In this document: positions 58,722 to 60,381 of the stretch, in pieces
Position numbering within the stretch: the first letter of the stretch is position 1
How the letters are laid out: every line of letters starts with the position of its first letter
Assembly (NCBI RefSeq): GCF_900116205.1
Contig: NZ_FOZS01000002.1
Span: forward strand, 496,001 to 560,000
Reading direction: 5' to 3'
DNA from: Halostagnicola kamekurae
GTDB taxonomy: Archaea > Halobacteriota > Halobacteria > Halobacteriales > Natrialbaceae
DNA: 64,000 nucleotides
Position numbers and translations under genes: made by a program
The notes under the pieces: model-generated
Told to the model about the DNA's origin: nothing
Databases searched by the model: none
What the model saw: the letters and a program-made list of their open reading frames with translations, nothing else

Positions 58722-59135
58722 ACGGTTGACATCCTCCTCGCGCTAAATCGCGAGGATTCCCAAGCGTTGGGATATAAACCGTATCCAGCGCGTTTTGTCA
58801 GTGCCGAAACGAGAAATCAGTTAGAACCACGATTCGTATCAGCAAAGGCCGATGACGGGTGGAAAAATCTATCCTTGATTCGGCCACTAAGTCGGCCTGT
58901 TCTGCTTGGTCAACATCTCCAAGAAGCGGTAAAGTGCAATGAAATCGAACACTCTAATCTTTACCGTATTTGCACCACGAACTAGGGTCCCTCTCTCGTT
59001 ACTACCGAGCGAAACAGGAAGTCGACCAGGAAGGGAGAGTCCGTAAACAAACGTGTTGTATTCTACTGATCCCGACCATCTATTTACCTCTTTGGAGAAG
59101 GACTTTTATTGTATAATATTAATGTATAGTTAGTA
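58722..59135. other. Intergenic region with IS200/IS605-like end remnant
   Basis: This 414-bp gap begins with a two-hairpin element (58735-58771) and then turns AT-rich. A 72-codon open frame at 58767-58985 has no protein features. TTGTATAATATT at 59109-59120 is a good TATA candidate for the next gene. Beyond these I see nothing. Confidence 0.55.
58735..58771. mobile_element. IS200/IS605 (tnpB-type) terminal hairpin remnant
   Basis: GTTGACATCCTCC leads into a perfect 8-bp stem TCCTCGCG (58735-58742) / CGCGAGGA (58749-58756) with loop CTAAAT, then a second stem CCCAA-GCG-TTGGG (58759-58771). This pair of hairpins with the flanking GTTGAC...TTCCC words resembles the ends of haloarchaeal IS1341-type elements. 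No transposase or TnpB gene is present, so it is a solo end. Confidence 0.5.
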
Positions 59136-59495
59136 ATATCTGATAGAAAGAAACTTAGCAAAAGAAGAATATTAAAAATAACTGGAGTGTCCATCGGTGC
59201 CCTGGTCGGTGGAAGTGGTGTAGCTGCCGCCAATACATCCGCTTCACAAGACAGGCAACTCTGGGTAGAAAACGGTCAGTTTGAGACTGATCTCGACAAC
59301 GATGCCCTCGATAAAAACAAGTATAATGCATTGATTGCTACTGTTGAAGAATTCAATCAAGCAATCGAAAACGGTCATGTCAGTCTCGAGGGGAACGCGT
59401 CTGAAGGGATAAGTACAGCATCTAACGATCAGACAGAATCAAAAGTCGTTGACATACAAGCGAGTCCGTCTAAGATTGCTGGAGGTGATGAATAA
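59136..59495 (+). CDS. Small Tat-leader protein, apparent ATA start
   Basis: In frame upstream of a GTG at 59187 the sequence reads SDRKKLSKRRILKITGVSIG, a clear twin-arginine leader continuing into ALVGGSGVAAA. The only codon in the place where ATG is expected (59136-59138) is ATA; the nearest stop is at 59127. Starting at ATA gives 119 residues, cleaved after about AAA. The mature part is short, acidic and helical (LWVENGQFETDLDNDALDKN). A TATA box at 59110-59119 is placed for a leaderless mRNA beginning at this codon. The next gene overlaps its stop. Confidence 0.6.
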   Translation: MSDRKKLSKRRILKITGVSIGALVGGSGVAAANTSASQDRQLWVENGQFETDLDNDALDKNKYNALIATVEEFNQAIENGHVSLEGNASEGISTASNDQTESKVVDIQASPSKIAGGDE

Positions 59496-59827
59496 TGCCA
59501 TGTAATAAGAACGACTATGACATCGATAACGAGGTATCCGGAGTTAATAAAGAGGTGAAATTATGGATCTCTGATGGTGTTATAAAAGATGTGAGAGGAC
59601 TGATCGAAATCGGCGGTTCTGGTGCAGCGGTTTATGGCCTTCTCGTCGAGAAGGGAGTCATTTCCGCAGGAGTTCTCGCAGGTCCTGTCGCTGCGATCGT
59701 GGGTGCGATAATTATCGCGTACATGGGTTGGATTGGGATCGAAAACGACGGTTGCGGTGTAGTCATCGAAATGAACGTCAATCCAATAGCTCCCGTAACG
59801 ACAACGCCGATCGTCTCTTCACAATAA
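59495..59827 (+). CDS. Small Gly/Ala-rich hydrophobic protein, possible pore-forming peptide
   Basis: This 110-residue protein has a polar N-terminus (MPCNKNDYDIDNEVSGVNKE), then IGGSGAAVYGLLVEKGVISA and GVLAGPVAAIVGAIIIAYMG, a Gly/Ala-rich amphipathic to hydrophobic stretch, then IENDGCGVVIEM and a Pro/Thr-rich tail. It has no leader of its own. It overlaps the preceding stop by one base (TAATG). The layout recalls small bacteriocin- or halocin-like peptides, but I know of no matching family. Confidence 0.65.
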   Translation: MPCNKNDYDIDNEVSGVNKEVKLWISDGVIKDVRGLIEIGGSGAAVYGLLVEKGVISAGVLAGPVAAIVGAIIIAYMGWIGIENDGCGVVIEMNVNPIAPVTTTPIVSSQ

Positions 59828-59967
59828 TTCTCGCTCCTTTTTGGCAGTACTAAATAAAAGTTTATATAAATAAATATATTTTATATTCATATATTTCTGT
59901 TTTGGAAATGGAGGGTAACTATTACATATTATACCTGCAATTGTTTTCATAATATCAGATCGTATCT

Positions 59968-60381
59968 ATGGAAGATGAAATCAGACACTCTCTATATCGA
60001 CGAAAGAACGTCATTTGGGGAATTCTCCTCATAGCGACGGCTGGGATAGTAATGCAGCCAGGGATAGAGAGCGCTCTACAGGGCGACCCCACCGGAAACT
60101 GGATTGTAGATGTCGTCCTTGGCATGTTATTATTGACGTTCTATTTCGGAACGAGACTCGCTAACTGGATGGATCAATCGTCAACGGATGTCTTTGGTTT
60201 GTCTGATTGGACTATGCTGTTTTTGTCGGCAGTCTGGATTGCAGCCTGCGCGTTACTCCTCTCTCAGGGGTTTTCTTCCATTGGAATTCTCGGATTTTTG
60301 CTCTTCGGAAGCGTTGGCGTCATCGGTATGCTCTATAAATTATATTCGATCCGTATTTCGGGATCTACAACAGAAATTTAG
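59968..60381 (+). CDS. Four-TM membrane protein
   Basis: This 137-residue protein has four hydrophobic helices (about 13-31, 45-66, 82-102 and 106-126) and short charged ends. It lies 140 bp downstream of the hydrophobic small protein, on the same strand and with the same low GC. It could be an immunity or transport partner of the two small proteins. No motif supports a specific role. Confidence 0.6.
   Translation: MEDEIRHSLYRRKNVIWGILLIATAGIVMQPGIESALQGDPTGNWIVDVVLGMLLLTFYFGTRLANWMDQSSTDVFGLSDWTMLFLSAVWIAACALLLSQGFSSIGILGFLLFGSVGVIGMLYKLYSIRISGSTTEI

What the first reader, a model, noticed from the sequence alone, without database searches (positions are those of the whole stretch)
59136..60381. 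AT-rich three-gene cassette: Tat small protein, overlapping Gly/Ala-rich hydrophobic protein, 4-TM protein
Seen: three tightly spaced small genes of low GC, bounded upstream by an IS-like end and unlike the flanking chromosome. The first has a Tat leader, the second overlaps it by one base and has a 40-residue Gly/Ala-rich hydrophobic core with a polar head and tail, the third is a 4-TM protein. Known: halocins are small exported peptides often made with membrane immunity proteins. Inference: this is a candidate undescribed secreted or pore-forming peptide system.
Basis: partly seen in the sequence, partly recalled or inferred. Interest (0 to 1): 0.62.

Follow-up and report, generated by a model that had tools for sequence, protein, structure and literature searches.

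The report
Split halocin-like toxin and immunity cassette
A salt-loving archaeon carries a three-gene unit that looks like an undescribed family of exported killing proteins with matching membrane protection proteins; here the usual single toxin precursor is cut into two overlapping genes, but the copy has lost its normal start codon and may be silent.

Summary
The trio is real, and it belongs to a patchy family confined, in this search, to haloarchaea (about 30 of 390 genomes, 20 genera) that Pfam, NCBIfam and PADLOC do not model. Most relatives encode one 200-285 aa precursor: Tat leader, small pro-domain, linker, and a C-terminal Gly/Ala-rich core with a conserved Cys pair and a near-terminal Gln. 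In the window and a few relatives the precursor is split: ORF1 is leader plus pro-domain; ORF2 is the core with no signal of its own, started from a strong Shine-Dalgarno at a TAATG overlap. A small multi-TM gene lies beside 33 of 35 loci (about 31% at random), and its type follows the core tree (0 of 200 shuffles as good). AlphaFold gives the core a confident fold (pLDDT 88) without a PDB match. Profile comparison with real halocin C8 finds only the Tat motif in common, so this is halocin-like, not halocin C8. Best reading: a secreted, membrane-acting archaeocin-type toxin with cognate membrane immunity, the core riding out on ORF1 through Tat. Toxicity, export and immunity are inferred. The window copy starts with ATA, where its sister genome has ATG, and may be non-producing.

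The parts
58726..58775 (.). Hairpin end of an IS200/IS605-like element, left border of the AT-rich stretch
   Evidence: Five other partial copies in the genome; strong hairpin, z -3.0; sub-threshold Rfam matches to sot0042 and HgcC
59104..59109 (+). TATA-like box (TTTTAT), about 27-32 nt before ORF1's first codon; fits a leaderless transcript
   Evidence: Read from sequence; kept at the same spacing before the ATG in A56. Inference
59136..59495 (+). ORF1: Tat leader plus pro-domain half of the split precursor; first codon ATA
   Evidence: aligned with the N-terminal halves of fused precursors; dN/dS 0.15 against A56
59481..59489 (+). Shine-Dalgarno GGAGGTGAT for ORF2, inside the 3' end of ORF1
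   Evidence: GGAGG(T/G)GAT and the TAATG overlap conserved in A56 and L086/L087; GGAGGATC + TAATG in L080
59495..59827 (+). ORF2: core domain (candidate toxin), no signal peptide; Cys3, Cys87, NDGCGV motif, C-terminal SSQ
   Evidence: Family alignments A1/A2; structure model pLDDT 87.8; dN/dS 0.13
59609..59743 (+). Gly/Ala-rich hydrophobic stretch of ORF2, residues 39-83
   Evidence: Hydropathy and composition
59968..60381 (+). ORF3: 4-TM candidate immunity protein
   Evidence: Homologues follow the core in L075, L013, L080, L082, L083; adjacency test; own AT-rich upstream region

Best explanation
The cassette is a member of a so far unmodelled haloarchaeal family of archaeocin-type toxin/immunity units. 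In most relatives one precursor carries a Tat leader, a small pro-domain, a flexible linker and a C-terminal hydrophobic core. It would be exported folded and the core released outside by a protease, as reported for halocins H4 and C8. The core acts on membranes, and the adjacent small multi-TM protein protects the producer. In Halostagnicola and a few relatives the precursor is cut at the pro-domain/core junction into two overlapping genes. The core then has no signal and most likely leaves the cell bound to the ORF1 pro-domain (Tat hitchhiking), which would make a maturation protease unnecessary. Shown here: family, architecture, split with conserved coupling signal, pairing with membrane genes, purifying selection. 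Inferred: toxicity, membrane target, immunity, hitchhiking, protease release. The window copy may now be a non-producer because ORF1 begins with ATA.
For: Core family in 29 of 392 order genomes and 30 of 391 class genomes, about 20 genera, none seen outside Halobacteria in the phylum draw. Fused Tat-pro-core precursors. A small multi-TM ORF beside 33 of 35 loci against 31% of random intervals (55-170 aa: 28/35 against 17%). Membrane-gene type clusters on the core tree: 10 changes, shuffled mean 18.1, 0 of 200 as low. The two Cys come and go together (23 both, 4 neither, 3 first only; Fisher p 0.0013). SD plus TAATG junction conserved. By hand scoring, 14 loci have a damaged precursor beside an intact membrane gene, 2 the reverse. 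dN/dS 0.12-0.15 for ORF1 and ORF2. Tat exports partners lacking a signal on a signal-bearing subunit (PMC4273604, PMC10924467).
Against: No activity data. The predicted core is a compact alpha/beta domain with helices of 7-13 residues, not an obvious channel. The random-interval control used only the window. The 14:2 asymmetry is p 0.004 by sign test but only 0.06 if damage scales with gene length, and draft-assembly errors can mimic damage. Hitchhiking has no direct support: ORF1-ORF2 binding was not modelled. Two loci (L093, L129) lack a recognised partner.
Confidence: 0.68

Rival explanations
1. Peptide signalling: the exported core is a pheromone and the adjacent membrane protein its receptor or transporter.
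For: Export plus a co-varying membrane partner would look the same in genomes.
Against: The partners are 2-TM (60 aa), 3-TM, 4-TM and 6-7-TM proteins of different sizes and kinds; the secreted half is a folded 100-aa domain; precursors decay while partners stay.
Confidence: 0.12
2. Cell-surface or envelope complex: pro-domain, core and membrane protein assemble at the producer's own membrane for a structural or transport role.
For: Hydrophobic core and membrane neighbour; purifying selection.
Against: Very patchy occurrence (about 7% of genomes), frequent damage, several kinds of partner.
Confidence: 0.1
3. Decayed remnant (compatible with the best explanation for the family): the window cassette is a former toxin locus that no longer makes the exported product, its start ATG having become ATA, and is kept for ORF3 immunity or simply fading.
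For: ATA start, three ATG-to-ATA differences from A56 within 15 codons; a remnant of the cassette at the same hpt-MATE site in G062; many damaged relatives.
Against: ORF1 and ORF2 otherwise intact with dN/dS 0.12-0.15; promoter spacing and SD kept; ATA is a possible, rare start.
Confidence: 0.5
4. Part of the halocin C8 family.
For: Same layout: Tat leader, N-terminal domain, C-terminal hydrophobic peptide; some C8-like loci also have a 4-TM gene downstream.
Against: Profile comparison finds only the Tat motif; the C8 models TIGR04449 and PF22862 hit real C8 proteins but none of this family.
Confidence: 0.03

Closest known systems
Halocin C8 (ProC8: Tat leader, HalI immunity part, 76-aa Cys-rich halocin)
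   Same: Tat-exported precursor whose hydrophobic C-terminal part is the candidate effector; found in haloarchaea, patchy
   Different: No sequence similarity beyond the Tat motif; 2 conserved Cys instead of 10; separate membrane partner; here the precursor is split
Halocin H4 with halolysin HlyR4 (described in PMC12893001)
   Same: Secreted precursor that yields an active C-terminal fragment
   Different: H4 needs an extracellular serine protease; the split form here would not. Sequence relation to H4 was not tested (record not held)
HmHapP / HFX_0892 precursor (PMC12893001)
   Same: Latent secreted haloarchaeal precursor
   Different: Its active part is N-terminal and released by a partner strain's protease
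Pore-forming colicins with membrane immunity proteins (from general knowledge)
   Same: Multi-TM immunity protein next to a toxin with a hydrophobic segment
   Different: No homology found; Tat export and archaeal setting
Tat hitchhiker complexes such as PaoABC (PMC4273604)
   Same: A signal-less partner carried out by a signal-bearing one
   Different: Those are redox enzymes, not a toxin and its own pro-domain

Membership tests
Halocin C8 family | C-terminal halocin C8 domain (TIGR04449), ten Cys | tested here: not met
   No hit in any of 10 precursors or the window; positive controls hit at 1.9e-15; hhalign of cores Prob 0.3%
Halocin C8 family | N-terminal domain PF22862 (Hac8_like_N, HalI) | tested here: not met
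   control hit 1.7e-48; hhalign of precursors aligns only 14 columns at the Tat motif
Archaeocins in general | Secreted through a recognised export signal | tested here: met
   Tat motif in intact relatives; the window copy encodes it but lacks an ordinary start codon. Motif seen in sequence; export itself not tested
Archaeocins in general | Growth inhibition of other archaea | not testable with these tools
   Needs an experiment
Archaeocins in general | Dedicated self-protection | tested here: inconclusive
   Membrane gene beside 33/35 loci and co-varying with the core; function untested
Halocin H4 family | Sequence similarity to HalH4 | not tested
   pHM300 record not held
Known anti-phage defence systems | Match to PADLOC models | tested here: not met
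   No match for the window proteins or four relatives, except one weak mad3 match (E 4e-4) for L097
Tat hitchhiker complexes | Signal-less partner co-exported with a signal-bearing one | not testable with these tools
   Architecture fits; binding and export not shown

The most novel reading that the evidence does not exclude
A pre-cut archaeocin: a toxin precursor evolutionarily split at its maturation site into a Tat-carrying pro-protein and a signal-less toxin that are coupled in translation and exported as a folded pair, replacing the extracellular protease step.
Probability: 0.4. Interest if true: 0.75.

Novelty: new variant of a known kind. Interest (0 to 1): 0.6.

Why it matters
Few archaeal toxins are known at gene level. 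If right, this adds a family of precursor/immunity pairs that current profile libraries miss, with a core that matched no solved fold here and several alternative immunity types, and gives a natural test of whether Tat can export a toxin as a complex with its own pro-domain. It would also explain a class of 'hypothetical' genes in haloarchaeal genomes. I could not check one likely overlap: Makarova et al. 2019 (mBio, known to me, not held) listed candidate archaeocin-like families and may already include this one.

Tried and rejected
Known families: Pfam, NCBIfam, PHROGs and PADLOC gave nothing convincing; one PHROG of unknown function matches ORF1 weakly (E 8e-5, residues 9-87). PDB by sequence: no significant match. 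Fold search of the core in PDB and BFVD: nothing (best VIA Z 4.5); of the precursor model: nothing; absence of a match does not prove a new fold. Viral contigs, phages and plasmids: no useful relative, so no sign of viral carriage. Alignment A2 was too divergent for a viral-contig scan. A rearranged cassette in A56 was first taken as real breakage; the pieces overlap by exactly 155 and 73 identical bases, so misassembly is likelier and it is not counted. Programmed frameshift between ORF1 and ORF2: rejected in favour of SD-driven coupling. HalH4 comparison could not be made. The paper most likely to list the family was not held.

Full report
Observation. The three ORFs are at the stated places. 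GC is 0.43, 0.47 and 0.46 against 0.61-0.66 in the neighbouring phosphoribosyltransferase-like (hpt) and MATE-like genes (gene names by my reading of the translations). ORF1 and ORF2 overlap by one base (TAATG). The left border carries a repeated hairpin end of an IS200/605-like element. One point changes the picture: ORF1's first codon, 59136, is ATA; upstream there is a stop and no ATG, GTG or TTG, and the next ordinary start (GTG 59187) lies after the twin arginines. The nearest relative, Halostagnicola sp. A56, has ATG there; between the two, ORF1 differs by three ATG/ATA changes in its first 15 codons. A TATA-like box sits at the same distance in both. So the Tat leader is encoded, but whether it is made in this strain is open.

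What the genes are. Protein and profile searches in whole genomes found ORF2-like cores in 29 of 392 genomes of the order and 30 of 391 of the class, in about 20 genera; a draw of 393 genomes of the phylum gave no match outside the haloarchaea. In most relatives the core is the C-terminal part of one precursor of 200-285 aa that begins with a Tat leader, followed by a small pro-domain and a linker. ORF1 aligns with that N-terminal half. The window's genome has a second, fused member on a 7.7-kb contig (L072). Conserved in the core are a Cys near its start, a GxG[VI] motif usually with a second Cys (NDGCGV), and a Gln at or near the C-terminus. The two Cys co-vary (23 both, 4 neither, 3 first only), which suggests a disulfide.

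The split. In the window, A56, G061 and G065 (one near-identical locus) and G137 (L080) the precursor is two genes cut just before the core Cys. The junction carries a Shine-Dalgarno inside the end of ORF1 and the same TAATG overlap in all. This is translational coupling rather than a recent frameshift. L080 has a stop in its core, so it is probably dead. ORF1 and ORF2 are under purifying selection against A56 (dN/dS 0.15 and 0.13); for ORF3 there are too few changes to say.

The membrane partner. A small ORF with at least two hydrophobic segments lies within 650 bp of 33 of 35 loci; random intervals of the window have one in 31% of cases (28/35 against 17% for 55-170 aa). Usually it is downstream on the same strand, sometimes divergent. 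There are several kinds (2, 3, 4 and 6-7 TM), and the kind follows the core tree (10 changes, shuffled mean 18.1, 0 of 200). ORF3 belongs to the 4-TM kind; relatives of ORF3 occur in only 7 of 125 genomes of the family, mostly beside a core or its remnant. Hand scoring of translations gives about 17 damaged precursors; 14 of these keep an intact membrane gene, while 2 intact precursors lack one. That is what loss of a toxin with retention of immunity would give, but the numbers are modest, the scoring was manual and draft genomes contain errors.

Structure. AlphaFold with 33 relatives gives ORF2 a mean pLDDT of 87.8 and pTM 0.81: two strands, four short helices, two strands. No solved or viral structure matched. 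The precursor L083 is modelled with a confident beta-beta-alpha-beta pro-domain (about residues 44-92), a disordered linker and the core (overall pLDDT 64). No two-chain model was made.

Mechanism. The best reading is an archaeocin-type unit: exported precursor, release of a membrane-acting core, and a membrane immunity protein. Precedent for C-terminal release exists for halocins H4 and C8 (PMC12893001; PMC11509114). Membrane immunity points to a membrane target; this is inference. For the split form, the core lacks any signal, and the Tat system can carry a signal-less partner on a signal-bearing one (PMC4273604, PMC10924467); the pro-domain is the obvious carrier. This step is a hypothesis.

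Known or new. I fetched real halocin C8 precursors from genomes, starting from the published peptide recalled from memory, which matched 100% in one genome. The libraries recognise them but not this family; profile comparison shows only the Tat motif shared. So it works like a halocin precursor but is not halocin C8. HalH4 was not compared. A 2019 survey of archaeal toxins known to me was not available and may already list the family.

State of the window copy. With an ATA start, the exported product may be absent. The site between hpt and MATE also holds a decayed cassette in G062, so loss does occur there.

Noticed in passing
L072 (G000:C14:5039-5689): A second, fused member of the family in the window's own genome, on a 7.7-kb contig with an Orc1/Cdc6-like gene, both core Cys replaced (Ala/Ser), and a divergent 66-aa 2-TM gene.
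   Followed up: partly
window 59136-59180 against L016: All three ATG codons in the first 15 codons of the A56 gene are ATA in the window; other differences are scattered.
   Followed up: partly
L002, L016, L136, L140 (Halostagnicola sp. A56): Cassette pieces lie at separate places with exact 155-, 73- and 504-bp overlaps; the draft looks scrambled and should not be read as biology.
   Followed up: partly
L156, L157, L158: Divergent halocin C8-like precursors are followed 78-98 bp downstream by a 125-aa 4-TM protein, a possible second immunity gene for C8 relatives.
   Followed up: no
L096: A Tat leader joined almost directly to a core without a pro-domain.
   Followed up: no
L138 (G062): Remnant of core and 4-TM gene at the same hpt-MATE site in another genus.
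   Followed up: partly
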